Made by a program: the position numbers and the translations under genes. Shown in pieces: positions 2,577 to 43,900 of a DNA stretch of 55,818 bases. The DNA comes from a virus, in IMG/VR virus record IMGVR_UViG_3300044678_003043, positions 1-55,818 of that record. One strand, written 5' to 3'. The notes beneath the pieces were generated by a model. It did not search any database and had not been told where the DNA came from. It was given only the letters and a program-made list of their open reading frames with translations. The first letter of the stretch is position 1, and every line of letters begins with the position of its first letter.

Positions 2577-2993
2577 TTATTTAATTTTTATACTTTTTGG
2601 CTTTTTTTCTTCTGGAATAATTCGTACAACATGAACATGCAACATTCCATCTTTTAATTCTGCAGAAGTTACTTCCATGTACTCTCCTAGTGCAAAGGAT
2701 CTTACGAACTTTCTTCCTGCAATACCCTTATGTACTACCTCTGCGTTTGCAACTTCTAGAAGCTCACCTTTGATAATTAACGTTCCGTTGTCTACGGACA
2801 CATCAATATCTTCTTTTGAGAATCCAGCAATTGCAAGTGAAATTTTATAAGTATCATCGTCTAGCTTAAGAAGATCATACGGTGGGTACGACTGTGAATT
2901 TGTTTTATATGCAGTATTTAATCGGCCTAACTCTCTGTTAAAGCCAATAAAAAATGGATCATTAAATAGATCCATTGCTAATTTGTTTACCAT
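2577..2993 (-). CDS. Hsp20-type small heat shock protein
   Basis: 138 aa, the usual length of IbpA/Hsp20 proteins. An N-terminal arm (FNDPFFIGFNREL) precedes an alpha-crystallin domain from about residue 36, with the strands YDLLKLDDDTYKISLAIAGF, DIDVSVDNGTLIIKG and AELKDGMLHVHV, and a C-terminal IKIK-type tail. These ATP-independent holdases keep unfolding proteins soluble and occur in some large phages. The start follows AGGGGA by 6-7 nt. A candidate promoter and an inverted repeat lie directly upstream. It sits immediately downstream of the tRNA cluster. Confidence 0.92.
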   Translation of the reverse strand: MVNKLAMDLFNDPFFIGFNRELGRLNTAYKTNSQSYPPYDLLKLDDDTYKISLAIAGFSKEDIDVSVDNGTLIIKGELLEVANAEVVHKGIAGRKFVRSFALGEYMEVTSAELKDGMLHVHVVRIIPEEKKPKSIKIK

Positions 2994-3059: not shown

Positions 3060-3073
3060 TATTGCATATGACG

Positions 3074-3147
3074 TGTCCCCAGTAGGTATCGATCCTACGA
3101 CCCACAGATTAAAAGTCTGTTGCTCTACCAACTGAGCTATAGGGACC
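3074..3147 (-). tRNA. tRNA-Lys (anticodon TTT)
   Basis: Cloverleaf read on the minus strand: acceptor GTCCCTA pairs with TGGGGAC (one G-T), D-arm AGCTCAGTTGGTAGAGC, anticodon stem ACAGA/TCTGT with loop CTTTTAA, T-arm GTAGG/CCTAC. The T loop starts with A instead of T. No CCA is encoded. Confidence 0.95.
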
Positions 3148-3160
3148 AACATTATTGCGC

Positions 3161-3232
3161 TGGACCACCAGGGCTCGAACCTGGGACATCAGAGTTAACA
3201 GCTCTGCGCTCTGCCAACTGAGCTATGGTCCA
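3161..3232 (-). tRNA. tRNA-Asn (anticodon GTT)
   Basis: Acceptor TGGACCA pairs perfectly with TGGTCCA, discriminator G. Anticodon stem CAGAG/CTCTG holds the loop CTGTTAA. The T-arm CCAGG TTCGAGC CCTGG is canonical. No CCA is encoded. It lies between tRNA-Arg and tRNA-Lys and is probably co-transcribed with them. Confidence 0.95.
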
Positions 3233-3242
3233 AAATGCAATG

Positions 3243-3315
3243 CGCCCCTGAAAGGAATCGAACCTCTGACGCAGGCCTTAGAAGAGCCTCGCTCTATCCG
3301 CTGAGCTACAAGGGC
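3243..3315 (-). tRNA. tRNA-Arg (anticodon TCT)
   Basis: Acceptor GCCCTTG pairs with CAGGGGC. The anticodon arm AGGCT CTTCTAA GGCCT gives anticodon TCT for AGA, a codon an AT-rich phage uses more than a GC-richer host. T-arm AGAGG TTCGATT CCTTT includes a G-T pair. It is the first tRNA after the promoter at 3326-3354. Confidence 0.95.
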
Positions 3316-3361: not shown

Positions 3362-4147
3362 TTAATCTCCGACACGATATCTAACTGATTTAATTCCTTG
3401 ATCTAGCTCATCTTGAAGCTTTTTAGATGGCTCCCAAACAAAGTTCTGTGGTGTAATCCATTCATTCCATCCATTTTTCCATCTATCTTCATTTTCTTTT
3501 GTTCCGTATGTAGGAAATGTACCAGGATTTTTTTGTACTGGTAAAACAAAATTAGAAAAAGCATATCTTGTTCCAGAGGTTATCTTTTTTACTCCATGAG
3601 TTTCACTTCCATAGGCGCCGTGTATTACCAAATCTCCAGCATTAGGCTTAACTCTAAGCTCAGAGTCACTATGATATGGTTCAAAATTTCCAATAAACTT
3701 TCCTTCGGAATTAATATTTGGATAATAAACTTCTCCGCCCTCCCATTCTCCAAAGTACGCTATGGCGCCATAATGAATTACACAGCATGTATTCCATATA
3801 TCTGAAGCAATTAATTCTTCTTCCATGTTTTCTCCAGGAGAATCTGCATGGTGATACATCTCTTCGCCCTCTTTGGTAACTATTAATGAAATCTGAGGGT
3901 GAATGCAGTATTCTGGCAAAAGAAACTCATTCATGTCGCACCACACGTCATAAAGTTCTGGAATTGCTGGAGAAAACTTATCAGCATACCAATCTATGTT
4001 ATGAGAATTTTCGTTTCTTTCTAAATTAGCATCCTCTAAATCTTTTATTATAGAGTGTATTTGGTCAAGCTTTTCTTTTTGAATAAAATTTCTGTATATA
4101 TAGATGTTATCAGAAATTTTCTCTACATTTGGGTTGTTATAAAACAT
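3362..4147 (-). CDS. 2OG-Fe(II) oxygenase, prolyl 4-hydroxylase type (A)
   Basis: 261 aa. The C-terminal double-stranded beta-helix core is readable: the iron ligands are His and Asp in YHHADSPGE and the distal His in ETHGVKKITSGTRYAF, with Arg of GTRY at the 2-oxoglutarate-binding position. GGEVYYP and KPNAGDLVIHG are further family landmarks. The family hydroxylates protein side chains or small molecules using O2 and 2-oxoglutarate. It directly follows the carbamoyltransferase gene (19-nt gap), so a shared pathway is plausible. It is one of three such enzymes here, and its substrate is unknown. Confidence 0.88.
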   Translation of the reverse strand: MFYNNPNVEKISDNIYIYRNFIQKEKLDQIHSIIKDLEDANLERNENSHNIDWYADKFSPAIPELYDVWCDMNEFLLPEYCIHPQISLIVTKEGEEMYHHADSPGENMEEELIASDIWNTCCVIHYGAIAYFGEWEGGEVYYPNINSEGKFIGNFEPYHSDSELRVKPNAGDLVIHGAYGSETHGVKKITSGTRYAFSNFVLPVQKNPGTFPTYGTKENEDRWKNGWNEWITPQNFVWEPSKKLQDELDQGIKSVRYRVGD

Positions 4148-4166
4148 TTTTCTCCTTTTATTTCAT

Positions 4167-5588
4167 CTAGTAAATTATTCTAGATTTATATTTTTCTTGC
4201 CATTCTTTTATATCATTTAAATCATTTAGCAAGGGCTGTCCCTTTATGTTAAGGCTAGTGTTTAGCAATACTGGTATACCAGTCAAATCGTACCACTTAT
4301 TTAATAATAAATAAAGCCCTGGATTTTGAACCTGATTCACTGTTTGGACTCTAGATGTTCCATCTTTATGAACTACAGATGGTATTAGTTCTGGCTTCAA
4401 GCACTTTGGAGTAAATTGCATATATGGAGATGAGTATTTCATATCAAACCATTCGGACGCATATTCTTCTAAAACTACTGGTGCAAACGGCCTAAATTTT
4501 TCTCTTTGCTTTATGGAGTTTACAATATCTTTAATGTTTGGGTCTCTGGGGTCTGCTAGGATACTCCTGTTTCCCAAAGCCCTCGGACCGTACTCAGATC
4601 TTCCTGTTGCAACTGCAGCAACTTTATTAACAATTAAGCTATTCAAAATTTTATCAACTGGATAATTTCCTCCGAGATCGTGACCTAGGTAAGGTCCTTG
4701 CCAGTTTAAATGCTTTCCATAAAGTGCAGCCGCAGCCCCTAATGAGCTTCCAGCATCCCCTGGGTTTGGCATAATCCATATATCTTTAAATATATTCCAC
4801 AAAATCGTATTTGCGGATGAGTTAAGTGCACAGCCTCCCATAAAAACTAAATTATTTTTACCAGTTAGTCTTTTTGCCATACGCATAAAATCATTTAATC
4901 TTTGCTCGTATACCATTTGAACTGCTGCTGCGATATCAAAACGATCTTGATCTGTAATAGCCATACCCCAGTCATTAATTCCTTTGTGAAAATTATACTT
5001 TTGTTGATCATATTGTGGGAAATACTCATCTACTTCCTTATAGTATCTTTTCCAATCTCCATAGGCTGCCATCCCCATCATGATATACTCTTCTTGATTT
5101 GGCATAAGACCAATTAGCTGTGTAAATGCAGAGTAAAATAATCCAAAACTTACTGGGTAGTTTTGCTTATACTTAAGATTGATTCTCTCTCCTTCTCCGA
5201 CCCATATTGTTGAGGTATTAAATTCACCAATTGCGTCAAGCACTACAATACAAGCATCGTTAAACGAACTTGTATAGTATCCTGCTGCTGCATGAGAGTA
5301 GTGGTGCTTAAAATAGTGTACTGGAACATCTATGGGAAATTTTGGCTTCCAGTCGCTTGCCCCTCCATGAAGAATCATCCTGGATTTTTTAAGCAATGGC
5401 TTTTCGTAGTATGCAATTGCATCTGGAGTTCCGTAGTTTAAAGCATCTAAAATTATTTCGCTATTGTTATACCAATCATTTTTATTCTTGCTGTATCTTT
5501 CTGCGTGTGCGGCAAATAGTATGTCGCCATTTTTTATTAATGAAACGGATGCGTCATGTGAAGTTTCATTAATTCCTAATATAATCAT
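4167..5588 (-). CDS. NodU/CmcH-family O-carbamoyltransferase
   Basis: 473 aa, shorter than many members (about 550-600). The N-terminal domain starts ILGINETSHDASVSL and includes HHYSHAAAGYY (near 93), LDAIGEF and GGCALNSSAN (near 246). The C-terminal YrdC-like adenylation part shows GRSEYGPRALGNRSI (near 327), FRPFAPVVLEE and GIPVLLNTSLNIKG. The family uses carbamoyl phosphate and ATP to carbamoylate hydroxyl groups (nodulation factors, cephamycin, TobZ). TGATG links the start to a short upstream gap after the SGNH gene. The acceptor is unknown; possibilities are a sugar, a modified nucleotide or a hydroxylated product of the adjacent oxygenase. Confidence 0.92.
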   Translation of the reverse strand: MIILGINETSHDASVSLIKNGDILFAAHAERYSKNKNDWYNNSEIILDALNYGTPDAIAYYEKPLLKKSRMILHGGASDWKPKFPIDVPVHYFKHHYSHAAAGYYTSSFNDACIVVLDAIGEFNTSTIWVGEGERINLKYKQNYPVSFGLFYSAFTQLIGLMPNQEEYIMMGMAAYGDWKRYYKEVDEYFPQYDQQKYNFHKGINDWGMAITDQDRFDIAAAVQMVYEQRLNDFMRMAKRLTGKNNLVFMGGCALNSSANTILWNIFKDIWIMPNPGDAGSSLGAAAALYGKHLNWQGPYLGHDLGGNYPVDKILNSLIVNKVAAVATGRSEYGPRALGNRSILADPRDPNIKDIVNSIKQREKFRPFAPVVLEEYASEWFDMKYSSPYMQFTPKCLKPELIPSVVHKDGTSRVQTVNQVQNPGLYLLLNKWYDLTGIPVLLNTSLNIKGQPLLNDLNDIKEWQEKYKSRIIY

Positions 5589-5633
5589 CAGTAGGTATAT
5601 CTTCTCTTCTTGATCATTTTTTTTATTTTTCTT

Positions 5634-6470
5634 TTAACTATTATTTTTTTTATTATTTTTATCATCTAAAAACCCCTTATAAAATTTTTCTGCCCATATC
5701 TTATGGTAGCCTCTACCGTAGTGATATCCATCCCTTGCTCTCATGTCTTCTATTTTCATTTCCCAATATTCTTTTGTAGGTGGGAATGTTGGAATATAAC
5801 CCTTAAACAAATCTTTTCCAACAATTTCTGGATCCGCACTTTGAGTATGCCATGTTGACCAAAAAAGTTTAATACCATTCATCTCACAAAACTGTACTAA
5901 GATTTTAAAAAGAAAGCTTGTGTATAAGATATTAACATTAATTACTTCTGGAACCCTGGTTTGGTTAAAAAAGCTTTTCCATTCTATTTCTCCAATATCA
6001 ATATCCCGTGATTCATAGGTTGGATAAAACCCTCTGTCTCCTGACCAAGTTATATGTCTTATCTGATCTGGTAAGTATAGAAAAATATAGTCTGGACAAC
6101 CATACTCATATATGTATTGAAAAACGTTCATAACTACCGTAGATGTTGTTAGACCAGCTTTACCCACATTATAGTAACCAGCAACATCATTTGACTCTTT
6201 GATCTTATTATATAAAACTTTTGCCCATGTATCTTCTAAAAGATTAGCTGCACCTTCAGTTTCTGAGCATCCTCCAAATAGCATGTGAATCCCATTTACA
6301 TCTTTGGTAAAATCGTCACACCTAAATCCTTTATTGTTATACTTATAGACTATCGCATCATCATCAATCTTTAATTGTTCTTCATAAAACATTATGTTTT
6401 CTTCAATATTTGGCTTTAAGTCGCCAAAATAGCTGTCTTTAAAAAAATTAACATTGAACTCAAATGACAT
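5634..6470 (-). CDS. SGNH/GDSL-like hydrolase-fold protein
   Basis: 278 aa. Block I is GGCSETEG (near 66, Ser in the nucleophile position), block II GKAGLTTST contains the Gly, block III DYIFLYLPD lacks the usual Asn, and block V has DGYHYG near 245 with the Asp/His pair. The fold removes acyl groups from sugars or lipids; loss of the block III Asn makes activity uncertain. The C-terminus is a poly-Asn/Lys tail. The gene overlaps the upstream oxidoreductase by 11 nt and precedes the carbamoyltransferase, suggesting a common polysaccharide- or modification-related task. Confidence 0.7.
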   Translation of the reverse strand: MSFEFNVNFFKDSYFGDLKPNIEENIMFYEEQLKIDDDAIVYKYNNKGFRCDDFTKDVNGIHMLFGGCSETEGAANLLEDTWAKVLYNKIKESNDVAGYYNVGKAGLTTSTVVMNVFQYIYEYGCPDYIFLYLPDQIRHITWSGDRGFYPTYESRDIDIGEIEWKSFFNQTRVPEVINVNILYTSFLFKILVQFCEMNGIKLFWSTWHTQSADPEIVGKDLFKGYIPTFPPTKEYWEMKIEDMRARDGYHYGRGYHKIWAEKFYKGFLDDKNNKKNNS

Positions 6471-7425
6471 TTTTAGCCTCCATGTTAAAATTATTTATTA
6501 AAATAAGCTTTCCAAAAGTTTCTCTACTTCTAATTTTTTCATGCATAGCCTTTGCATCTTCAAGGTTCATAACTTCTCCTGTAACAATCTTTATTTTTTT
6601 ATTTTTAATTAGATTAAACAGATAGTCAACTGCTTCATTTAATTTTATTTTGTCTTCAAAAATCTTAGTGCCCCAGAATCCAGAAACAATTTTTGAATCT
6701 TTTAATATATCCCTAATTTCAATATGTGGTAGACCATCTCTAGATGATGCACCGTATGAACATATCTGACCGCCTGTACTTAAAACTGAATAGTAACTCA
6801 TAAAATGCTTACCACCATACGACTCTATAATAAATTTTGGCTTTGATCCCGCCTCAGATATAACCTTTCTTACCTCAGACATATTGTCTAGGCAAACAAA
6901 ATCTGCACCTAAGCTTTTTACAAAGTCTATCTTTTTTTGACTTCCAGTAACAGCTATTACTGTGGCGCCATATAACTTACACATCTGAACTAAAATCATA
7001 CCAACTGCACTTGAAGCCCCATTTATTAAAACTAAATCCCCAGGCTTGACATCACAAAAATATTTTAATATACCATACGCTGTTGTGCCTTGGCATACAA
7101 CTGACAAGGCCTCTTCTTCTGAGACTCCATCTGGAACTTGAAATACCCTATCTAAATTAACAATAGCTTTTTCTGCATAAGAACCGCTTGCTGTATGACC
7201 TACAAAAAGATTACCATCTATTTCAAATGAGGCCTCGATTCCAGGAATAACTGGAGGCAATGACTGAACTAAGTAACTATTTTCAGTTTGATATGTATCA
7301 GCATAATTTACGCCAATCATTCTAGTGTTTACTAATATCTGATTATGTTTTGCAACTGGCTCCTTGAAATCAGATAGCTCCATTACTTCTGGACCTCCAA
7401 ATTTATTAACAACAATGGCTTTCAT
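6460..7425 (-). CDS. Quinone oxidoreductase-like MDR enzyme
   Basis: 321 aa, the normal length of zinc-free medium-chain dehydrogenase/reductases of the NADPH:quinone oxidoreductase type. N-terminal GroES-like domain with FGGPEVMEL, VNYADTYQ and IPGIEASFEI; Rossmann domain with the nucleotide-binding loop INGASSAVGMILVQ (near 134) and VIAVTGSQKK; C-terminal segment AKAMHEKIRSRETFGKLIL. Such enzymes reduce quinones or alpha,beta-unsaturated carbonyls with NADPH. They are rare in phages. Overlaps of 1 nt upstream (TAATG) and 11 nt downstream place it firmly in the same transcription unit. Confidence 0.9.
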   Translation of the reverse strand: MKAIVVNKFGGPEVMELSDFKEPVAKHNQILVNTRMIGVNYADTYQTENSYLVQSLPPVIPGIEASFEIDGNLFVGHTASGSYAEKAIVNLDRVFQVPDGVSEEEALSVVCQGTTAYGILKYFCDVKPGDLVLINGASSAVGMILVQMCKLYGATVIAVTGSQKKIDFVKSLGADFVCLDNMSEVRKVISEAGSKPKFIIESYGGKHFMSYYSVLSTGGQICSYGASSRDGLPHIEIRDILKDSKIVSGFWGTKIFEDKIKLNEAVDYLFNLIKNKKIKIVTGEVMNLEDAKAMHEKIRSRETFGKLILINNFNMEAKNVI

Positions 7426-7823
7426 TATACTCCAACTTCCTCTCTGTATTCAATAAGAATATCATATAATAATTCAGAGTAGTCTTTATTGACAATTAAA
7501 AACTGACTCACATTTGGACTACATAAATCGAGTAACTCATCATAAGATCTTTTATCTATTTCAAAAAACCATCTTATGTGCTGAATAAACAATATAAATA
7601 AATCATGGCCCTGCTCTGTTTTTGCCGATACCCCTAAATTTATTGCATTATCAAATTTATCCTGAAATAAGTATGCTTCTTTAACCATAGACAAATATTC
7701 TTCTTCTGAATAAGATTTCATTTTTTCAGTAGCTTTTATAACCCAGGGATTGTTAGGAAATATTTTAGCTATGTCTTGAAATAAAAACCTTCTATTTTCA
7801 AAATCTTTATACTGATTAACCAT
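7425..7823 (-). CDS. Hypothetical protein
   Basis: 132 aa, mostly helical and acidic, with no motif I recognise. Aromatic-rich helices (LFILFIQHIRWFFEIDKRSY) occupy the middle. It ends in TAATG shared with the oxidoreductase start and begins immediately after the 109-aa gene, so it is translated in the same operon. No signal peptide or clear membrane helix is seen. Confidence 0.75.
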   Translation of the reverse strand: MVNQYKDFENRRFLFQDIAKIFPNNPWVIKATEKMKSYSEEEYLSMVKEAYLFQDKFDNAINLGVSAKTEQGHDLFILFIQHIRWFFEIDKRSYDELLDLCSPNVSQFLIVNKDYSELLYDILIEYREEVGV

Positions 7824-8153
7824 TTACATATCAAGTTCGTCTTGGTCTATAGGAATTATTCCCTTTTGCTTAGCTATCTGATATCCTTCTTCTGTAAAAT
7901 TATATGTAGCCCGAAGATTTTCATCATACTCAACATTCATCAAATCATTATTAACTAGGTCTATAAGCTCTGATTCAACATACTCTTCATGCGCCTGCCA
8001 TAAATCTGGTGCTAAAACTGAAGTTATGTTTTCATTTAATTCAAATATCGCTTCACCATCTTGTGTAAATCCAGCAATTTTAATAGCACCGATGTCTATG
8101 TAGTGTTGTATTTTAAGCATAAGCTCTTCTTCATCATCATATTCGTTAAACAT
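7824..8153 (-). CDS. Hypothetical protein, winged-helix-like
   Basis: 109 aa, very acidic. The pattern GFTQDGEAIFELNE followed by an AHEEYVESELIDL helix and a beta-type VEYDENLRATYNF strand suggests a small winged-helix or two-part alpha/beta protein of a type often seen near phage terminase genes. I cannot assign a function. It lies between the tRNA-Met gene and the 132-aa gene, with no gap to the latter. Confidence 0.75.
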   Translation of the reverse strand: MFNEYDDEEELMLKIQHYIDIGAIKIAGFTQDGEAIFELNENITSVLAPDLWQAHEEYVESELIDLVNNDLMNVEYDENLRATYNFTEEGYQIAKQKGIIPIDQDELDM

Positions 8154-8164
8154 GCTACCTCCTG

Positions 8165-8238
8165 TGCAACAAGTAGGACTTGAACCTACGATTACCGAAT
8201 TATGAGTTCGGGGCTTTAACCAACTAAGCTATTGTTGC
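8165..8238 (-). tRNA. tRNA with CAT anticodon (Met elongator or Ile2)
   Basis: Acceptor GCAACAA pairs perfectly with TTGTTGC, discriminator A. The anticodon arm CCGAA CTCATAA TTCGG gives CAT. The three G-C pairs typical of initiator tRNA are absent, so it is an elongator Met tRNA or a lysidine-modified Ile2 tRNA; sequence alone does not separate these. T-arm GTAGG TTCAAGT CCTAC. No CCA is encoded. Confidence 0.93.
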
Positions 8239-10830: not shown

Positions 10831-11430
10831 TTAGTTGACTAGGATTGGAACTTTGATTTCCCTGTATATCATAGAAGAGTAAACAACCCTTAAATCAGAA
10901 ATTAATTTATTAACACCGTGGGAGCAATGCTTTTCTGCGCTGTGGATTATCATGTCTCCTGGGCTGGGTGAGTAGACTACTCCTTGATTTTCATAAAATA
11001 GCTCTCCTCCATCCACCTTATTTAAATAAACAACTATTCCGTATACTGGCTCTTTTACAACCTCAAACTCATCGCCATCCTTATAATTCTTTGCAATCTC
11101 TATTTGCTTCTCTACTTTATTATTGTCGTAATGCACTGCCATTCCTTGTCCTGCATGATATTTCTGTAAATATACCGAGTCACTTAGTACAAGATCACCA
11201 CTTGATAATTGAAAATCTTTCATTGCTTCATAAATAAATTGAGCTTCTCCAAAATAATTAGTTACATAATGCTGTGGATTCATTTTTAAATCAAATTGTG
11301 GGTTCCAAATTTCTGGCGAGGAATTTTTTGCAATATTAAAAAGACGATCAGCGCTCTCAGGTGTAATAAAATTTTTATATAAATATATATCTTGACCTAG
11401 ACTGATAGAGCCATTTGTATTAAGCATCAT
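10831..11430 (-). CDS. 2OG-Fe(II) oxygenase, prolyl 4-hydroxylase type (B)
   Basis: 199 aa, close to a minimal catalytic domain. Iron ligands: His and Asp of AVHYDNN, distal His of KHCSHGVNKL; Arg of SDLRVVYS takes the 2-oxoglutarate position. GGELFYENQG and PSPGDMIIHS are family landmarks. It overlaps the Nmad1-like gene upstream by 11 nt. Two adjacent Met codons at the start leave a 1-codon uncertainty. The substrate is unknown. Confidence 0.88.
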   Translation of the reverse strand: MMLNTNGSISLGQDIYLYKNFITPESADRLFNIAKNSSPEIWNPQFDLKMNPQHYVTNYFGEAQFIYEAMKDFQLSSGDLVLSDSVYLQKYHAGQGMAVHYDNNKVEKQIEIAKNYKDGDEFEVVKEPVYGIVVYLNKVDGGELFYENQGVVYSPSPGDMIIHSAEKHCSHGVNKLISDLRVVYSSMIYREIKVPILVN

Positions 11431-11754: not shown

Positions 11755-12339
11755 TTAAAATAATCCCTTAACTAATTCTAACGAGTATTCTAAAACTTTT
11801 TTAGAATCTTTTTTGCCCATATGGTTGTAAAAATCTTCTGACTTATAGTTATATTCTACTATATTATTGATAATTTTAATAGGGGGGTGAATACCTTTTT
11901 CTATACAGTAATCATGTAGATAGCTATTAAACTCGGTGTATTGCTCTAGGGCATTATTTGTATACCATGTCTCCATAAAAATAATTTTTGCCTTAGTCGA
12001 CTTAGCAAACTCTATGCAGGTATCTACATACTTTTTTACCACCTCTTGGCAATTATTATACTTTTTTAAATGAAACTGGGTATCCATACCTCCAAAACAA
12101 AATACTATAAAGGAGTTTTCATCTATCATTTCATAAAAAGGATCTATTAATTCTTTCAATAAGTGTGTGTCTAGGTGGTAAGCTGCCCTTGAATGCTGCC
12201 AGCCAAAGTAAACTTCTGCCCCATCCATTACAAATTGATAATTGCCAACATGGTACTCTCTTACATTATAAACATCTTTTGTAGATCCAGAAAAAAAGGC
12301 TGTATGCGAGTCACCAATAAAAAAAATCTTATTTGTCAT
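11755..12339 (-). CDS. SGNH hydrolase-like protein (second)
   Basis: 194 aa. Block I is FFIGDSHT near the start, with Ser as the nucleophile; FIVFCFGGMD resembles block III with Gly; and DFYNHMG near the C-terminus holds the Asp/His pair. This is a compact complete SGNH fold. It is clearly different in sequence from the SGNH-type gene at 5634-6470. It overlaps the 46-aa HTH gene upstream (ATGA). Likely activity is esterase or deacylase, substrate unknown. Confidence 0.72.
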   Translation of the reverse strand: MTNKIFFIGDSHTAFFSGSTKDVYNVREYHVGNYQFVMDGAEVYFGWQHSRAAYHLDTHLLKELIDPFYEMIDENSFIVFCFGGMDTQFHLKKYNNCQEVVKKYVDTCIEFAKSTKAKIIFMETWYTNNALEQYTEFNSYLHDYCIEKGIHPPIKIINNIVEYNYKSEDFYNHMGKKDSKKVLEYSLELVKGLF

Positions 12340-14092: not shown

Positions 14093-14430
14093 TACAAATT
14101 ATACCTAACGACATACTTAAGTGCATCTACAAGTTTGTCTATGGACTCTTTGGCTGAATAATAAATATTTTTCTTGTTATTATTTGCTGTACCAGCTTTA
14201 TCTTTTGCTATTGTTGAATAATAAGATGCCATCATTGAAAATTTAGTTGACATTGCTTGCAACTCAATAATCAGCTGAGGTGCTTTAGCTGCTGGAACAT
14301 CTGGGTTAAGTAATAGCTTTACAACTATTGCAAGAGCTTTGTCTAGCTGATCATCTTTCATATAATCATGCAGATCGTTAAATTCAGTTATAGAGTTTAT
14401 AAGCTCTAGTGTATTTTGATCAGTTGTCAT
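14092..14430 (-). CDS. Hypothetical helical protein
   Basis: 112 aa, nearly all helix. An N-terminal acidic region is followed by LLLNPDVPAAKAPQLIIELQ and a Lys/Asn-rich C-terminal half (KAGTANNNKKNIYYSAKES). It is probably cytoplasmic. No family is recognised. It overlaps the oxygenase upstream (11 nt) and abuts the Cas4-like nuclease downstream, so it is translated with the recombination genes. Confidence 0.8.
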   Translation of the reverse strand: MTTDQNTLELINSITEFNDLHDYMKDDQLDKALAIVVKLLLNPDVPAAKAPQLIIELQAMSTKFSMMASYYSTIAKDKAGTANNNKKNIYYSAKESIDKLVDALKYVVRYNL

Positions 14431-15337
14431 TGTCCCACCTAACTAAAAAATTTTTCTTTGCTTCTTCTCTATTATATGGGAAGTAAATTCTTTCCCCATG
14501 AACATTTTGATTCTCCAAGTTTTCCTCCGTATCGTCTAAAAATACTGGTAGCCTAAACCACTTGCTAAGATTCCAGTCAGACTCGATTCTTTCTTTTTCC
14601 ATTTTTTCCCACAACTCAGCTCCGTAATTTTTTTTGTTACGATTCCATGACTCAGAGCCATCATATTTACAGGTAACAAACATCCTTAGTAAATATTTTT
14701 GCCCGCTAGATATGGATTCTACACCATGGAAGTAAGGAAGTCCACTCGGGAACACCGTAATATCTCCAGCTTTTGGTTTAAAATAACTTATCTCTTTGGT
14801 ATCCTCTTTAATAAAAGACAGCTCTCCACCTCCATAATCATCATTTAAATATATTGTCACTGTTATAAATAAATGGTCTTTAGGTGATTCAAAATCAAAT
14901 TGATGTTGATCTGTGTGATAGCTCATAGCTAGCCTATCTTGAGGGTTTGGGTTGTACATTAATAAAATTGGGTCTGTAGGCTTAAGGTCAATGAAGTCCT
15001 GTCCTCTTGTAAAGCTCCAATCAGTAACATATGGCCAATCTCCAACGCTCTTCCATTCTTTTATGTAATCCTCTACAACCTTCCAATATGCATCTTCTAT
15101 AGATAAAAATATATTACTCTCAGATCTTCCTATTGGACTATCCATAATTCTTTCAAAATCATTACCGTAAAGCGAAGCTGTTGATGAAAATCCATATTGA
15201 CCCCAAGGCTCCCATTTTTTAAAAACAAAATGAGTTTCTCTTTCTTTAGAGTCCAGGATGGAAGCAAGGGTCTCTTGTGGATTACTAAATACATCTCTGT
15301 ATACAACAACCTTCGGTGACAATATTTTTTTAATCAT
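14420..15337 (-). CDS. 2OG-Fe(II) oxygenase, prolyl 4-hydroxylase type (C)
   Basis: 305 aa from the ATG at 15337; a longer frame upstream overlaps another gene and was not chosen. Iron ligands: His and Asp of SYHTDQHQ and distal His of PYFHGVESISSGQKYLLR. Here Lys sits in the 2-oxoglutarate site, as in classic prolyl hydroxylases, while enzymes A and B of this phage have Arg. GGGELSFI and KPKAGDITVFPSG are also typical. The C-terminal 80 residues form an extra charged extension. The start overlaps the small membrane-protein gene by 8 nt. Confidence 0.88.
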   Translation of the reverse strand: MIKKILSPKVVVYRDVFSNPQETLASILDSKERETHFVFKKWEPWGQYGFSSTASLYGNDFERIMDSPIGRSESNIFLSIEDAYWKVVEDYIKEWKSVGDWPYVTDWSFTRGQDFIDLKPTDPILLMYNPNPQDRLAMSYHTDQHQFDFESPKDHLFITVTIYLNDDYGGGELSFIKEDTKEISYFKPKAGDITVFPSGLPYFHGVESISSGQKYLLRMFVTCKYDGSESWNRNKKNYGAELWEKMEKERIESDWNLSKWFRLPVFLDDTEENLENQNVHGERIYFPYNREEAKKNFLVRWDNDN

Positions 15338-15434
15338 TTTGCTTTTTACTCTTTTTATCCAGATTGTCTGCAAAAAGACCCATAGCATATCCAAAAACAA
15401 TTCCGATCATTATTCCAATCATAAATGATGTCAT
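15330..15434 (-). CDS. 34-aa single-pass membrane peptide
   Basis: 34 codons from an ATG coupled by ATGA to the XapX-like gene. Residues 2-22 are hydrophobic with Gly spacing (FMIGIMIGIVFGYAMGLF), then a charged tail DNLDKKSKKQND. One membrane helix with the tail probably inside the cell. It could be a small holin-like or regulatory peptide acting with the XapX-like partner; this is inference. Ends 8 nt into the oxygenase gene. Confidence 0.75.
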   Translation of the reverse strand: MTSFMIGIMIGIVFGYAMGLFADNLDKKSKKQND

Positions 15435-37372: not shown

Positions 37373-37956
37373 ACTTGCTCCAAAGATATATTAACGCTCC
37401 AAAACGGCTGGATGCCTCTTTTGATAACAGCAAAATCACACGATGTAAAAGACATGGTGTAAGTATAATCGTCTGAAAGTGCGGCTGTGCCTTCAACTAA
37501 AGAAGGAGAAAAAACTGTTGGGTTAATTTTAACTCTAAACGTTCCTCGTCCTGCCGAGCTTTCATAAAAATTTTTTATATCTTCTGCTCCCCATGCACCA
37601 TCAACTGTTTCATTTCTAAATGAAGGAACCATTTCCCAAGAAACACTAAGATTTAGCTTGTCTGCAATAAAATATTTTCTAAGTGTTCCATTTGCCATTC
37701 TTTGGCTAGACTCACGTCTTTCTGTATTTATTGAAAGAGGATCTCTATTGTGCTCTGTTAGTCTTCTAAATGCTAATGATCCTGCATTTGCAAATGCTAA
37801 TCCATTTGTATTTGCAGCTGATTCCGTATATGTATTACCAGGAGCAGAAACATTGGCCCCCTTATAATTAAATTGATTTGTTGCTGTATTAATCGCAAAT
37901 GGATCTAGAGCTTCTATATATAAAATTGAACCCTTGCTTAGATTTTGAAAACTCAT
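37369..37956 (-). CDS. Distal tail-type/minor tail protein
   Basis: 195 aa, beta-rich. Its position right after the tape measure and the closing strands (YTYTMSFTSCDFAVIK, QPFWSVNISLEQV) suggest a distal tail protein that links tube to tip. It overlaps both neighbours by 4 nt (ATGA). The family assignment is by position more than sequence. Confidence 0.65.
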   Translation of the reverse strand: MSFQNLSKGSILYIEALDPFAINTATNQFNYKGANVSAPGNTYTESAANTNGLAFANAGSLAFRRLTEHNRDPLSINTERRESSQRMANGTLRKYFIADKLNLSVSWEMVPSFRNETVDGAWGAEDIKNFYESSAGRGTFRVKINPTVFSPSLVEGTAALSDDYTYTMSFTSCDFAVIKRGIQPFWSVNISLEQV

Positions 37957-40900
37957 TGCTTGCCTACCATTCTATTTACTCCAGCTGCCATTTCTTTTAA
38001 TCTCATTTCATTACGTATTTCTAGTGCAACATCTTTTGCTGTCACGTTTGTTCCATTTAATTCTACATTAATATTATATACTGATCCTGATGCTGCCGCC
38101 GTAGCATTTGGATTAAATGGATTCATGTTAGCTGGAATAACAGCTTCATCTTTATGAAGCATTGCCAACATATTTGCAGGAACCATATTGATTCCATTTT
38201 CAAACATTGGTAAACCTAGATTTTTTAATGAAGAATTTGAGAAGTTTTGTACAAGCCCGCCATTTGCCCATCCGTCGCCGCGGATGATACCCCAACTGCC
38301 ACGGCTAGCCTCCGACTGTCTAGCAAGTTTTTCTGCTTCAATAATTCTTTGTAGCTCTGGTAAAGCTGCTGGCTCTATATATCCGCCTGGACCATATGGG
38401 AAGTTTGCTGATGTACGGTATGTGCTTCCAAACCACCGTATAGTTTCTGGGCGAAGTGCTGCACTTAGAGCTGAATCAAGGTCAGCAGTTCTATCAAACT
38501 GCCAGCCAATTATGCTGTTTCGATCATTAAATTCGTCAATGGGGTAGCGAGGAGTTGCTGGTGCAGAGGATACGGTTTCAGTTATATGATTATTTTCCCA
38601 AGATCCGATACCTTTCCTTGGCTCTCCAGTTGATGGCTTTGCTTTCTTAGACTTTTTAAGTTTCATTAGTGTATCTAGATAGCTCTTTATGCCAGTAATT
38701 GAAGTTGCACCATAGTAAGGATCATCTGCCATAAACCCACCGATACGAAGAGCTGATGGCCTTCCCATGTCAGTTAAAGTAGGTGAATGTTTTATTCTAG
38801 TAATTGAAACTGCTTTATTGTATAAAGCTTCTGAAAGATGAAGCCATCTATATTCTGGATGTGTTCCACGATAGCTAATGTGTCCAGTAACTGGATCATA
38901 GTTTATCCAGGACATTTGTTTTTTAGTAACAGGATCTAGAATCTCTGCTTGGTGCATTCCACCTGCGCCAAAGCCTTCTGAAGTTACTCTTCCTTCTTTT
39001 AAACCTTCAATAAATTTGTCTATGTATTTTGCATCAGTAGGTAAAATATCTGCTTTTTCAAACCTAAAAATATAATCTTTTCCGTTTACCTTAATAGACT
39101 CTTCTATAATTTTTGGCAAATTCTTATTTTCTTCAATAAGATTAGCGGCAGTGGTATTTTTTAAATCTGGTAGTGAAGTAAAATTATTTCTCCTTGCTGC
39201 TCTTATTGCATCAGATAGCGCAAGTTCATATCTTGCTTTTGCAAACTCTGGTGTGTCAACTTTATCTGCTTTTTTAAGAGCCACAAAATTACTTCTAAGT
39301 GTAGCGTTTGGAATAAGGCTAACTCTAGCTTCTGTTGGTAAATCTAGAGTTGCTTTATTTATTAAATTATATGCTGCAGAACGTGCACGAAGTGTATTAA
39401 CTCCTTTTAGAGCACCCACTCCTGGAACAAAATTTAATCCTGCATTAGCCCAATCACCTTTAGTTGCGCTTCCCTTTGCAATTTCTCCGAAAGGATGAAT
39501 CATAGCTTTCATCAAGCTAGAAACATCTGATTCATAAGATGTTGGATTTAAAGCTTTTCCAATTCCATCTTTTGCAAATGTTGGAGTTTTACCTTGAAAG
39601 TAAACACCCAAAAGATCTGAAGCTAATGATGTAAGTGGCGCAAGAAGTCCGAATGGGGAACGAGTGAATACTTTACCAAATCCCTCTGAGTAGTTATTTA
39701 TAGGATCATCTATTTTAGATTCATAATATGAAAGATTTTTGTTCTTTCTTGCTTTTTGTTTTTGGTTTTCAGACTTAAGTGGAGTAAGCTGAAGTCTCAT
39801 CTTCTCAGCTTCGGTTTGCTTTCTGCTTAAACCAAACGATCTCATACCTAGGTCATGAGGTGCGCTTGAATGAGTGTGCCCTACTGGACCGCCAGCATGG
39901 AACATTAATGGGCCAAGTCCGTATGCTCCATTGCCAATGCCGCCCATAGAGGCGCCAGAGCCTGCATATCGCATTGGATCTCTATCTATACCCATTCCTG
40001 GGCTTGCAAACGGCTTACGTGGCTGCTCAAGCATCTGATGCATGTAGTCTGAATGCTGTGGAACCTTTCCAGTAAACTTAAGCCCTGGTATTTCTGTTCC
40101 GCCCCAAATATCCATTCCTGGGCTACGTGGGCCAATAAATCTAGAAAGCTCTCCCCAATATTGACCAAAAGGGTTTCCTATTGGTTTTCCAGATCTTGAA
40201 TATGGAACCCCTGGCTTCTTTTGTCTTGGTACTGTTATAGGCCCACTAATCCAATTTCCAGAATTAGTTAATGAGTTTACGACTTTTCCACCTTCTGCAA
40301 ACTTCTTTATGCTTACCTTTGTACCTGCAAAAATTCTTGACCCACCCATATACTTTGGATCCTTTAGCTGAGGATTCATTTCCATTAATTTGTTAACAGT
40401 AATTCCGTACTTTGAAGCAATACTAGATAATGTGTCTCCTCTATTTACTGTGTATCTTTCATTTTCATAATCTGATTTAGCATCATCTGCGCTGTAGTAT
40501 TCTTGTGTGCCGTATCCATATTTAATGTTATCTACTGGCTTATATGAAGGTCTTCCAAATCCTACAACTGGAGCATTCTTTAAATTGTATTGTCTTACTT
40601 TTCTAAGCACGGCTCCGCCGCTTCTTTGGCTTCCAGATCCTGATGTATTTCCTTCTATAGTTGAAACTGAATTCTTTCCTAAAACATTGCTTACAAGACC
40701 AACGTGAGAAATTCTATTTACGCCGTCTCCTGGGAAATCCATAAAGGCTAAATCTCCCCGACGTGGATTCATAGTTGTCCACTTGCCGCTCTTCATAAAT
40801 GATTGAGCTCCTCCAGGAGTCCAAATCATACTTGCTAAATCTACTCCAGATTTTTTTGCTGCCCAGTTTATAAAAGCACCGCACCATGCGATATATCTGG

Positions 40901-43900
40901 TTTGCAGATCATAAGCTTTTTGTGCAAACTTTCCAAATATAGTATCGTTGCCTCTTCCTTCCTGATACCCTATCATGGACTCTGCTGCTTTAATCATTGA
41001 GTCTGCTGTGCCCATCTTGCTTACCTTGCCGCCATTTGCAAATCTGCCAGCATTTAAATCACTAAAGAATGAAGGCCCAAATTCTTTTTCAGCTTTCTTA
41101 ACTGAATCTGCTTTAATTACCCACTCACCGTCAGAAAGCATTGCAGGAATTGAGTCAGATGTTGAAGTTCCTGGACCGCTTACATTTCCACCTGGATTAA
41201 AATGTTTAACTGATCCTCCAGTGGCCATCTTTTTTCTATCTTTAACGGGAGCCCCTAGTATGTCTAAGCTTGAATCAAAATTGTAGACTGTGCCGCTAAT
41301 TGGATCTACAGCATACGTTTTTGAATTATATGTAAATACTGAATATTTTCTAGTAGGATCACTTGGTAAAGTAAACTTTTTTGTTTGAGAGTCTGTCATT
41401 CTCATTGCTTGGTTCGCTGCTGCATTTCCATCCTTTGCAACAATGTTTGCGGCCTTAATTGAAGTTGCAGTTCCTGAACCTGGGATATTATTTTCTCTTG
41501 TTTTATAGTAGTGAAGACTTGTAGCAATAGATTTTGCAAGCTCTTTTATATTCATTCCACCAGTGATGTCTTCGGCTAATGTAACTACAGACTTAAGGTC
41601 TTTAGCAAACTGAGCTAGTGAGTCTAAGTTTGGTATTGTAATCTTTGGGAATATTGGCTTGCCCTTGCTATCAAATCCTGTTGGAGATCCACCAGTTGTT
41701 GTGCCAGGTGATAAAGGCTTTCCATCTTTATCAAAGTAACCTGGGAAAGACTCTCTTACTGTTTTGGCAAGCAAGGTGGATCCAGTACCAGCTTTTTGCA
41801 TTTCTTTTAGAAAAGCTATCAGCTCTGATTGAATTTGTGCTTCTTCAGCTACTCTTTGTTTTTCTGGAAGGAATGTTGCGGTAATTGCTCTGGATGTAAG
41901 ATCATTATATGTTGTCTGTAATTTTTGAATTGCTGCAGTTATTTCACCTGCAAGTGCGGCATTATCCTGGTTGTTAGCCATAGCTATTTGTTTTTTATCA
42001 GACTTATCTTGAATTGCTTGTGCTTGTTTTTCTAAAGGTTCCTTTGCTTTTTTTGCCGCATCTTCAATTGCTTTTTGAGCAAGGTCTGATTGTCTATTCA
42101 TTGTTAGCTGATCTATGTCAAGTTTTGCTTGATTTGCCGCAGCCATGTCTCCACGAGAAACAGCATCTGCGTATTGAATCTGAAGCTTTTGCAACTCTAA
42201 TGCATAATTTGATGCATCTTGAGTTGCTCTTAAGGAATCAAGCTTTGCATTTTTTTCATCCTCGATTAGCTTAATTTTTTTAGAAATAATTTTTAGCTGT
42301 TCTTGAGAAGATCTTTGTTCGGCTGCAGCAGCTCTTTGAGATGCTGCAGAATTTGCAGAAATTATTCCCTGCATCTTTTTTAATGCTGCGCCTGTTGCAC
42401 CATATGTAGTTGAATTATCTGCAGCAGCCGTTAAGTCAGAAATTCCTGTAGCAATTGCTTCACTAAAACCAGCTAACTTTATTGCAAGTGTGGAGTCTAT
42501 GTTTTTTAAATCTAGATTTATTCCAGAAGTAAACAGTTTCCATTTAGCTAATATACTCTTTATGCTGTCTGCCTCGTTTGAAATTCCAGCTAATAGGGAT
42601 TGAGATTCTTTTAACTTATCATACGCATCTGAACCTATTTCTTCATTAAATCCAGGGAATTGTTCTTCCGCACTAGACATAACCAACTTATAAGCTTCAT
42701 AATCATCTATAGCATTTCCAAGTGCATCTTTTGTTCCAACAAGGCTCTTTGTTGCTTCATCAAATGTATTTATTAGTCCTTCGAATCCGCTTCCGACAAG
42801 GGTACTTGAAGCGTCTGTGCTATTTAATACACTTACCAAGTTTCCTACTGCAAATGATGCTGCGGAAGCTTTATCTACAATTGATCCAAATTGTACGTCT
42901 GCTAATAGCTGGTAGGATTGGGAAGCCTTGTTGCTATTTGCTAAAGCTCCATAAATCTTTTTATTTGCTTCTTCAATGCTCATTCCAGCTGCAACCATTT
43001 GCGCCTTTTGATTATTAATTATTCTTTGAGCTTCTTGCTTTCCATCTGCTCTATTTAATGATTCTATTAAATCCTTTAGAGCCTTGCCCTCTTCCTTAGC
43101 CTTCTTTAAATCTTCTATGGATCTAGGGAGACCAGGCATTCCGATTGAATTAAATTCTGAAGACTTTGCTGCTGCTGCAGCAACCTTTTGTTTATCAATA
43201 TAACCCTGCATGGTTTCTTTAAGGTTAAAATATTTTACTCCAGCTTCTTCTGCTGCTCTTGCGGTCATAGAAAGACCCATTGTTGCATCTTGCTGAGCAT
43301 CCTTATAGTTTTGATACATTTTAAATATACCAAATGCTGCTGTTGCAACTACTCCTACAAGGCTAAATGCTTTTGCAAATCTTGCTATCTGTGCAACAAC
43401 TTGTGCTGCCTTTGCCCCTGCACCAGTAACTCCCATAATAGCAGCTTTAGCCGAAGATGCTCCAGATTTAAGTGCTGTAAGTGCTTTAACGTATGGAAGC
43501 ATTGGAAGTATGGAAGTTGCTCCCATTAACATCATTCCAGCATTCATTCCAGAAGTTTCTTTACCGAAAATATTTACTTTTTCTTTGCCCATCAATGCCA
43601 TTCCACCCATTGATCCAGCCATACCAATTCCCATTTGAGCACCTACGCTCATTCCGTTTGCTCTTTGAGGTATAGATACTCCAGCTTGTCGTGCCTGCTT
43701 AGCACTCATGGTTACACCATCAACTAGATATTCTGTTCTTCTTGCTCCTAATACACCAACTTTTCTAGACTGTATTCCATCTCCAAGGTCTTTATACCTT
43801 CCAATCATTCCTGGACCAAAGAATCCTTGTGCTGGTGCTTGTCCTACTGGATAATTATTAGCAGCAAATGCATTTTGTGCTCTAACAATTGCATTTATTT

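What the first reader, a model, noticed from the sequence alone, without database searches (positions are those of the whole stretch)
3362..7425. Phage cassette: oxidoreductase, SGNH protein, O-carbamoyltransferase, 2OG oxygenase
Four enzyme-like genes lie in one tight operon: MDR oxidoreductase (6460), SGNH (5634), NodU/CmcH carbamoyltransferase (4167) and prolyl-hydroxylase-type oxygenase (3362). Known carbamoyltransferases add carbamoyl to a hydroxyl, and a hydroxylase can make such a hydroxyl. NodU-like enzymes have been predicted in phage DNA-hypermodification clusters. The set may make or decorate a modified base, virion protein or host glycan. This is the best candidate in the window for an undescribed system.
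Basis: partly seen in the sequence, partly recalled or inferred. Interest (0 to 1): 0.8.

Follow-up and report, generated by a model that had tools for sequence, protein, structure and literature searches.

The report
Phage carbamoyltransferase–SGNH enzyme pair
A freshwater bacterial virus carries a swappable gene block whose stable core is two enzymes, one that attaches a small carbamoyl tag and a partner that looks like an ester-cutting enzyme; in the longer sequences of related viruses the two came and went together, which points to an undescribed chemical modification whose target is still unknown.

Summary
The four ORFs are real, on one strand and tightly packed, at the stated coordinates, and the enzyme classes are right: NodU/CmcH-type O-carbamoyltransferase (CmT), SGNH-fold hydrolase, QOR-like MDR, 2OG oxygenase. 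A fifth small gene (7425-7823) belongs with them.

The conserved unit is CmT plus SGNH. In 28 relatives chosen by terminase, 10 have both, 18 neither, none one; in 35 longer records 28 have both, 7 neither. In 20 short fragments chosen for lacking a nearby SGNH, 5 hold one elsewhere, 15 none. Adjacency recurs in 34 of 80 distant phage loci. CmT is near-constant (median 81% identity), its neighbour SGNH hypervariable (28%). Both are under purifying selection. The block sits in a tRNA-flanked slot that holds AhpC/AhpD/SDR in a close relative.

DNA modification is disfavoured: no thymidylate synthase, ThyX or dCMP deaminase in records searched, and the residue signature differs from the known 5hmC enzyme. 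The 2OG-then-carbamoylation chain is unsupported.

Most likely the pair tailors a hydroxyl on a soluble glycan precursor or metabolite; the substrate is unknown.

The parts
4167..5588 (-). NodU/CmcH-type O-carbamoyltransferase (CmT), core of the module
   Evidence: PF02543 + PF16861 over cut-off; phrog_1601; model vs GdmN Z 30.7, NovN 29.4, TobZ 28.9; HHYSHA at 95 and GRSEYGPRALGNRS at 329
5634..6470 (-). SGNH-fold hydrolase (SGNH-A family), partner of CmT
   Evidence: G67, S69, H250 invariant and D247, N101, G106 nearly so in 42 relatives; AlphaFold pTM 0.84; PDB match to a GDSL-like lipase E 3.4e-5, CgnD Z 15.0
6460..7425 (-). QOR-type medium-chain oxidoreductase (MDR), optional member
   Evidence: PF00107 72.5 bits; best solved relative quinone oxidoreductase 1iyz E 2.6e-31
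7425..7823 (-). small 132-aa protein of unknown function that precedes MDR in five of six MDR lineages
   Evidence: order g7425-MDR in the window's phage, L003, L020, L046/L047, L039; not in L151-L154/L163
3362..4147 (-). 2OG-Fe(II) oxygenase, prolyl-hydroxylase type, optional cargo
   Evidence: PF13640 below cut-off; HAD at 100 and H184...R194
8164..8238 (-). tRNA-Met on the upstream side of the cargo slot
   Evidence: at the same place in 10 of 12 relatives scanned, after CmT in L018 and L020
3073..3315 (-). tRNA-Lys, tRNA-Asn, tRNA-Arg on the downstream side of the cargo slot
   Evidence: nucleotide identity to L007 breaks inside tRNA-Asn at 3226
7824..8153 (-). conserved small gene at the upstream edge of the slot
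   Evidence: identity to L007 resumes at 7851
2577..2993 (-). Hsp20-like gene that follows the slot (name from sequence reading, not from a family search)
   Evidence: homologues in 72 of 163 loci

Best explanation
The cassette is swappable cargo of a freshwater siphovirus related to Stanwilliamsviridae. Its functional core is an apparently obligate two-enzyme pair. Step 1 (inferred from the family): CmT joins carbamoyl phosphate and ATP to carbamoyl-adenylate and transfers the carbamoyl group to a hydroxyl of a soluble acceptor, most likely a sugar in a glycan precursor or another tailored metabolite in the infected cell. Step 2 (inferred): the SGNH enzyme works on the same ester chemistry, by removing an acyl group to free the hydroxyl, by trimming the carbamate, or by passing the acyl group on to a variable acceptor. 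Because CmT is nearly constant while its SGNH partner varies widely (and some phages carry two or three), the CmT substrate is probably common to these phages and the SGNH step sets the variable outcome. MDR plus the 132-aa protein form an optional sub-module; the 2OG enzyme is further optional cargo. Shown: pairing in the longer sequences, constancy versus diversity, fold, catalytic residues, selection, slot swapping. Not shown: substrate, order of steps, benefit to the phage.
For: Co-occurrence: 10 both / 0 single / 18 neither in 28 terminase-selected loci, and no other cluster associates as strongly; 28 both / 0 single / 7 neither in 35 records. On the terminase tree the CmT state changes 6 times (4 forced by supported branches) and SGNH goes the same way in 4 of 4 supported pairs. 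Adjacency: 66 of 100 near loci and 34 of 80 distant loci directly adjacent, 76 and 47 within four called genes; 2 SGNH hits in 64 CmT-less loci (708 kb), both in contigs where the SGNH gene is the last called. Marine virus AG-345-D19 has a profile-supported SGNH gene, then a second gene that looks SGNH-like by eye but matched neither profile nor Pfam, then CmT. In Bacteroidota, 5 of 5 tested large proteins near CmT carry GDSL domains. CmT median identity 80.7% vs adjacent SGNH 27.9%. CmT fold matches GdmN, NovN, TobZ, natural-product O-carbamoyltransferases. Neither CmT nor SGNH has a segment over 1.6 on the Kyte-Doolittle scan, so both look soluble. In cyanophage S-SCSM1 a CmT lies among GDP-mannose/GDP-fucose genes and in pelagiphage HTVC008M two genes before UDP-glucose dehydrogenase, as annotated.
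Against: Of 20 short records chosen because no SGNH lay within four genes of CmT, 15 show none at all; all are fragments of 4-31 kb, several ending just after CmT, so they neither refute nor support. In 33 of 80 distant loci no SGNH was found within four genes, so the pairing is not universal outside this group. The phylogenetically corrected test has only 4 supported pairs and p 0.125. No sugar-nucleotide gene was identified in the window, and a PF11397 glycosyltransferase occurs in only 7 of 35 records, so a glycan target is not directly backed. Neighbours in distant phages include radical-SAM/SPASM enzymes, which point to metabolites or peptides as much as to glycans.
Confidence: 0.5

Rival explanations
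1. Crocagin-like tailoring: the enzymes modify a peptide or small metabolite (possibly a signal or antibiotic-like compound), with SGNH acting as a hydrolase on the scaffold and CmT adding the carbamoyl cap.
For: The closest structural match of the SGNH model by the second-look aligner is CgnD, the hydrolase that releases the crocagin core (Z 15.0 over 210 residues against 13.1 for the next; paper passages). The crocagin cluster also holds a carbamoyltransferase (CgnI) and a dioxygenase that needs 2-oxoglutarate and iron (CgnC). CgnD's triad Ser79/Asp325/His328 has the same D-x-x-H spacing as D247/H250. Distant phage CmTs neighbour Radical_SAM proteins (22 of 112 and 5 of 34 neighbours scanned) and SPASM (8 of 112).
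Against: No sequence-level match of the SGNH profile to CgnD; Foldseek ranks CgnD only 36th, E 0.008. No precursor peptide or CgnB/CgnE-like protein was looked for. Radical-SAM-like proteins are nearly absent from the window's own group (2 of 2971 ORFs by motif, L003 and L004, same position).
Confidence: 0.2
2. DNA hypermodification: CmT carbamoylates a hydroxymethylated base in phage DNA, as in 5-carbamoyloxymethylcytosine.
For: A phage-associated CmT with exactly this activity has been characterised (PMC8670742, abstract, passages and one methods section). CmT, SGNH and the 2OG enzyme look soluble.
Against: No thymidylate synthase homologue in 22 records, no ThyX and no dCMP deaminase in 35, no TET/JBP over cut-off in 22 (sub-cut-off matches in 7). 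25% identity to the characterised enzyme. At the three positions the paper marks (TobZ W408, G421, R423) the window has V, G, R and the DNA enzyme I, C, T (register by motif spacing). SGNH has no role in that pathway.
Confidence: 0.08
3. Virion protein or virion-glycan decoration: the enzymes modify tail or head proteins in the cytoplasm before assembly.
For: Soluble enzymes; some relatives have a PF11397 GlcNAc-transferase-type gene in or near the same slot, and 7 of 35 records carry the family, all seven with CmT.
Against: 21 of the 28 CmT-bearing records lack that transferase. No collagen-like repeat in the window's proteins.
Confidence: 0.12
4. Unlinked cargo: four independent auxiliary genes that happen to share a recombination slot.
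For: The slot holds unrelated cargo in sister phages (AhpC, AhpD-like, SDR, IMPDH/GMP reductase, Trp halogenase by Pfam; catalase-peroxidase by eye; order); the 2OG gene does not track CmT.
Against: CmT and SGNH co-occur without exception in two samples and are neighbours in many distant phages and some bacteria.
Confidence: 0.1

Closest known systems
Nol-like carbamoyltransferases of T4-like cyanophages and pelagiphages (phrog_1601)
   Same: Same family; some beside 2OG oxygenases and sugar genes, e.g. S-SSM7 CmT-2OG-Nol-endonuclease V-Trp halogenase, S-SCSM1; 141 phage records match
   Different: All 141 under 60% identity, 40.6% for the first listed. The A1-type SGNH was detected near CmT in only 2 of the 8 phage regions fetched from that list (L168, L175). 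Function there is also unproven; one paper assigns it to pyrimidine synthesis (PMC9146016, passages), which does not fit PF02543/PF16861
5-hydroxymethylcytosine carbamoyltransferase (MetaGPA, PMC8670742)
   Same: Same two-domain family, phage-associated
   Different: 25% identity; no thymidylate synthase found in 22 records of this group; residues match TobZ, not the DNA enzyme, at two of three marked positions
TobZ, GdmN, NovN, VtdB antibiotic O-carbamoyltransferases
   Same: Fold over the whole length (Z 26.9-30.7); C-terminal motif
   Different: 473 aa against 576-702 in the PDB chains; acceptors of those enzymes are antibiotic scaffolds, that of the phage enzyme is unknown
Crocagin cluster (CgnD hydrolase, CgnI carbamoyltransferase, CgnC dioxygenase)
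   Same: Three of the four enzyme classes; first fold match for SGNH by VIA-align
   Different: No sequence match; no precursor peptide known here; no MDR in the passages read
Bacterial CmT operons with SxtJ-family and GDSL proteins
   Same: CmT near a GDSL hydrolase; an SxtJ-family gene next to CmT in L295; a published cluster table lists O-carbamoyltransferase, two hypothetical proteins and a GDSL-lipase as sxtI, J, K, L (PMC2684587, passages)
   Different: The five cell proteins tested are 637-676 aa GDSL-TPR proteins (650 aa in L294), some with hydrophobic N-termini by eye; phage SGNH-A proteins have a median of 314 aa and the window's looks soluble; no SxtJ match in 35 phage records, without a positive control

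Membership tests
NodU/CmcH-type O-carbamoyltransferase | Carbam_trans_N and Carbam_trans_C domains | tested here: met
   124.9 and 180.8 bits, both over cut-off
NodU/CmcH-type O-carbamoyltransferase | Whole-chain fold of TobZ/GdmN/NovN | tested here: met
   Z 28.8-30.7 over 459-469 residues, rmsd 3.2-3.5; next group (TsaD/Kae1) at 17.1; model pLDDT 74.0
NodU/CmcH-type O-carbamoyltransferase | Transfer of carbamoyl from carbamoyl phosphate/ATP to a hydroxyl | not testable with these tools
   needs enzyme assay
5-hydroxymethylcytosine carbamoyltransferase | Thymidylate-synthase homologue (dCMP hydroxymethylase) in the same phage | tested here: not met
   0 of 22 records; records may be incomplete, eight are 109 kb or longer
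5-hydroxymethylcytosine carbamoyltransferase | Residues of the DNA enzyme at TobZ 408/421/423 | tested here: not met
   V/G/R against I/C/T
SGNH/GDSL hydrolase superfamily | SGNH fold | tested here: met
   18 PDB chains at E <= 0.001, 16 of them GDSL lipases, TesA or esterases and 2 a designed scaffold; TM by query length only about 0.4, by target 0.5-0.66; Z 11.3-15.0 in the 50 rows
SGNH/GDSL hydrolase superfamily | Catalytic Ser in block I and D-x-x-H in block V | tested here: met
   S69 and H250 invariant, D247 in at least 90% of 42 sequences
SGNH/GDSL hydrolase superfamily | Pfam GDSL/SGNH profile match | tested here: not met
   0 families for the window protein
SGNH/GDSL hydrolase superfamily | Block III Gly-x-Asn-(Asp) | not tested
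   no such column stood out by eye; not examined further
QOR-type MDR | Sequence relation to quinone oxidoreductases | tested here: met
   1iyz E 2.6e-31
2OG-Fe(II) oxygenase (P4H type) | Pfam profile over cut-off | tested here: not met
   16.1 bits vs 27
2OG-Fe(II) oxygenase (P4H type) | HxD...H iron triad and distal Arg | tested here: met
   HAD at 100, H184, R194; motif knowledge recalled
Crocagin-type cluster | CmT, SGNH-fold hydrolase and 2OG dioxygenase together | tested here: met
Crocagin-type cluster | Precursor peptide and CgnB/CgnE-like peptide-binding proteins | not tested
   no search made
Bacterial CmT operon with SxtJ and GDSL | SxtJ-family small protein beside CmT | tested here: inconclusive
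   0 of 35 phage records, but the control rang nowhere

The most novel reading that the evidence does not exclude
A previously undescribed modular carbamoylation system of phages: one conserved carbamoyltransferase supplies a common carbamoylated product and a fast-diversifying set of SGNH enzymes acts as interchangeable specificity units that place, pass on or remove the group on different host-specific acceptors; in distant phages the same pair is joined by radical-SAM/SPASM and other tailoring enzymes into virus-borne biosynthetic clusters.
Probability: 0.25. Interest if true: 0.8.

Novelty: new variant of a known kind. Interest (0 to 1): 0.58.

Why it matters
Carbamoyltransferase genes recur in aquatic phages (141 records in one phage collection match) without a settled function; published assignments range from nucleotide synthesis to DNA modification. 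A partnership with an SGNH hydrolase, all-or-none in the longer freshwater sequences and echoed in marine phages and bacteria, turns an orphan gene into a two-part system that can be expressed and assayed. It also suggests that many such phage genes are not the DNA-modifying kind.

Tried and rejected
DNA hypermodification was tested first and set aside on gene content and signature residues. TET/JBP gave only sub-cut-off matches in 7 of 22 records, read as other 2OG enzymes. A collagen-like substrate for the prolyl-hydroxylase-type enzyme: no Gly-X-Y run of six or more in the window proteins listed. A four-enzyme pathway: 2OG does not track CmT. An SGNH-alignment scan of viral contigs was impossible because no stretch was conserved enough. 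Single-protein scans with MDR and 2OG found only the near-identical phage contig, because the patterns are strict, so their rarity is not shown by those scans. The one scan of cellular genome contigs returned a single relative, so the family in cells was probed only in Bacteroidota; the actinobacterial host of this phage is inferred from terminase and capsid relatives and was not tested. The A1 profile found no SGNH in 35 of 80 distant loci at first pass. A motif search for GDSL proteins in 20 Bacteroidota loci printed nothing; the Pfam search then tested 5 chosen large proteins from 5 of the 20 loci and all 5 hit; the other 15 loci were not tested that way, and in L290 the GDSL gene is one gene away from CmT. 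The 2OG protein had no PDB relative at E <= 1. The phylogenetic sign test lacked power. PF11397 is in 7 of 28 CmT records and 0 of 7 without, too few to mean anything. In the near loci, 19 with CmT show no SGNH anywhere in the stretch held; their records, with one exception (L159, same type as L016), were searched whole. With closed ORFs only, three loci showed SGNH without CmT (L046, L048, L075), in each the last gene called; with open-ended ORFs two (L046, L075). One error I corrected: my first cluster table mis-split the 2OG gene of L003, so I first took the four-gene set as unique to the window's phage; one search showed it in L003 as well.

Limits of the counts: the 163 viral loci include the window's own locus (L001) and a near-identical phage (L002/L085); up to 80 loci each were chosen by terminase and by CmT (both lists capped), so co-occurrence is quoted from the terminase-chosen set (28 of 81 stretches, the others had under 6 kb downstream or no full terminase) and from 35 records picked by me mostly for length, which hold near-duplicates. 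The SGNH profile was built from these phages, so a very divergent SGNH would be missed.
Full report
Observation. The four ORFs stand at the stated coordinates on the minus strand, tightly spaced, with a fifth small ORF (7425-7823) overlapping MDR by one base. Pfam confirms the carbamoyltransferase (CmT) and MDR; the SGNH protein has no Pfam match and the 2OG enzyme is below its cut-off. PHROGs calls CmT 'Nol-like carbamoyltransferase'. The window is a 55.8-kb virus record.

What the phage is. Terminase and major capsid are at best 61-63% identical to Streptomyces phages such as Gilson (terminase), which is in Stanwilliamsviridae. The 3778-aa tape-measure protein implies a siphovirus with a very long tail. 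An actinobacterial host is inferred from this. Terminase relatives are abundant in viral contigs (at least 596 stretches encode one; the best 80 were kept), and 557 stretches encode a CmT relative (best 80 kept: the near-identical phage, the rest 76-84% identical).

The cassette is swappable. Comparing gene order over these loci shows a slot between the conserved genes after terminase and the Hsp20-like gene. In L007, whose terminase is 99% identical, the slot holds AhpC, an AhpD-like protein and a short-chain dehydrogenase instead; DNA identity breaks at window 3226, inside tRNA-Asn, and resumes at 7851. Each of the twelve loci scanned has two to seven tRNA genes in or beside the slot. Other occupants named by Pfam on representatives are a tryptophan halogenase, IMPDH/GMP reductase and a PF11397 glycosyltransferase, with a weak, sub-cut-off sulfotransferase; a catalase-peroxidase-like protein is a reading of sequence only.

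The conserved unit is CmT plus SGNH. In the 28 terminase-selected stretches with at least 6 kb downstream, 10 have both, 18 neither and none only one; SGNH is the only cluster that stands out (Fisher p 7.6e-8, rows not independent; next best p 0.025 and negative). In 35 records, 28 have both and the same 7 lack both. As a test against this reading I searched whole a further 20 records, chosen because no SGNH lay within four genes of CmT: 5 carry one elsewhere and 15 none; those 15 are fragments of 4-31 kb, several cut shortly after CmT, so they leave the question open for them. On the terminase tree the state changes 6 times (4 forced by supported branches) and SGNH follows in 4 of 4 supported independent pairs; the sign test cannot go below 0.125 with four pairs. 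MDR, with the 132-aa protein before it in five of six lineages, sits beside SGNH-CmT in the window's phage, L003, L020 and L047, directly before CmT in L151-L154 and L163, and without CmT in L039. The four-gene order is shared only with L003 among the loci held; a 2OG gene like the window's is within 300 bases of CmT in 6 loci, three lineages, of 99 with CmT.

Constant enzyme, variable partner. Over 561 pairs of non-redundant loci with both genes adjacent, CmT has a median identity of 80.7%; SGNH could be aligned in 485 of them with a median of 27.9%. CmT identity does not follow terminase identity (L012: terminase 97%, CmT 76%; L147: 56% and 82%), so the CmT module moves between phages. Several phages carry two or three SGNHs. 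Both proteins are under purifying selection.

Structure. The SGNH model (pLDDT 80.6, pTM 0.84) matches GDSL lipases and thioesterase TesA in Foldseek (best E 3.4e-5, TM by query 0.44 and by target 0.58, rmsd 6.7); the second-look aligner puts CgnD of crocagin biosynthesis first, Z 15.0, rmsd 3.5, 210 residues, against 13.1 for the next, while Foldseek itself has CgnD at rank 36. The family profile has only weak PDB sequence hits, the best to GDSL/TesA block I, none to CgnD. The CmT model (pLDDT 74.0) matches GdmN, NovN and TobZ over nearly its whole length (Z 28.8-30.7).

Beyond this phage group. Among 80 distant CmT loci (45-73% identity to the AG-345-D19 enzyme, a capped list), 34 have an SGNH directly adjacent and 47 within four called genes; non-redundant, 30 and 40 of 69. 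In 64 CmT-less loci (708 kb) there were 2 hits, both in contigs where the SGNH gene is the last gene called. The profile was built partly from these same loci, so this compares neighbourhoods and is not an independent detection test. Many distant loci also carry radical-SAM-type genes: a C-x3-C-x2-C protein in 49 of 80 loci, Radical_SAM in 22 of 112 and 5 of 34 neighbours scanned (146 of the 174 neighbours listed), SPASM in 8 of 112. In Bacteroidota, 127 of 296 genomes have a CmT relative at E <= 1e-40; five large proteins near it, from 5 of 20 loci fetched, were tested and all carry GDSL domains, and one locus has an SxtJ-family gene beside CmT. In L164 the gene just upstream of CmT has a weak SGNH-domain match, below cut-off.

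What it does. Family knowledge says CmT transfers carbamoyl from carbamoyl phosphate via carbamoyl-adenylate to a hydroxyl. The DNA route known for one phage-associated CmT (PMC8670742: abstract, passages and section 31 read) pairs it with a thymidylate-synthase homologue and has marked residues; neither fits here. The register of those residues was set by the spacing of the W-x2-G-R-x-E-x-G-P-R-A-L-G-x-R motif, not by reading TobZ letters. I therefore favour a soluble sugar or metabolite acceptor, with SGNH acting on the same ester chemistry. The evidence for glycan over metabolite or peptide is thin: cyanophage and pelagiphage neighbourhoods speak for sugars, crocagin and radical-SAM neighbourhoods for metabolites.

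Literature. A full-text search for carbamoyltransferase, SGNH and 'phage genome' together returned no paper; looser searches showed no description of this pair in the titles and abstract openings listed (15 of 81, 20 of 50 and 12 of 13 papers). The library lacks most subscription journals, so this is not proof of absence. Sullivan et al. 2010 (PMC3037559, passages) list carbamoyltransferase and 2OG oxygenases in cyanophages without linking them in the passages seen.

Verdict. Real, functional by selection, and a new variant of a known kind: phage Nol-like CmT cargo with an apparently obligate, hypervariable SGNH partner. Substrate unknown.

Noticed in passing
window 10831-11430 and 14420-15400: Two further 2OG-Fe(II) oxygenases with HxD motifs; the second is over the Pfam cut-off (41.8 bits), so the phage carries at least three.
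   Followed up: partly
window 11755-12339: A second SGNH-like small protein with GDS at residue 9, beyond the terminase genes; relatives in L003 and L020. No Pfam GDSL match.
   Followed up: partly
window 37953-49289: A 3778-aa tape-measure protein with internal endolysin-like and transglycosylase-like stretches around residues 2759-3012.
   Followed up: no
L189-L255: Marine and giant-phage CmT loci with radical-SAM/SPASM genes, and by sequence reading amidinotransferase-like (L237, L168) and sulfotransferase-like (L189, L191) genes; the two sent to Pfam (L237:6685-7725, L189:1817-2851) gave no match.
   Followed up: partly
L003, L039, L047: A PF11397 GlcNAc-transferase-like gene (L039 product scanned) in or near the same cargo slot; 7 of 35 records have the family.
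   Followed up: partly
window 7425-7823 and L039 13825-14274: The 132-aa protein before MDR has a distant relative (27%) before the 2OG enzyme in L039; it may be an adaptor. Weak sub-cut-off TipAS match.
   Followed up: no
window 3073-3315 and 8164-8238: tRNA genes border the cargo slot and one break point to L007 falls in a tRNA gene, a likely recombination anchor.
   Followed up: partly
literature, PMC9146016: Cyanophage CmT is assigned there to pyrimidine synthesis; the record's CmT matches our PF02543/PF16861 family (S-SZBM1), so this looks like an annotation mix-up.
   Followed up: no
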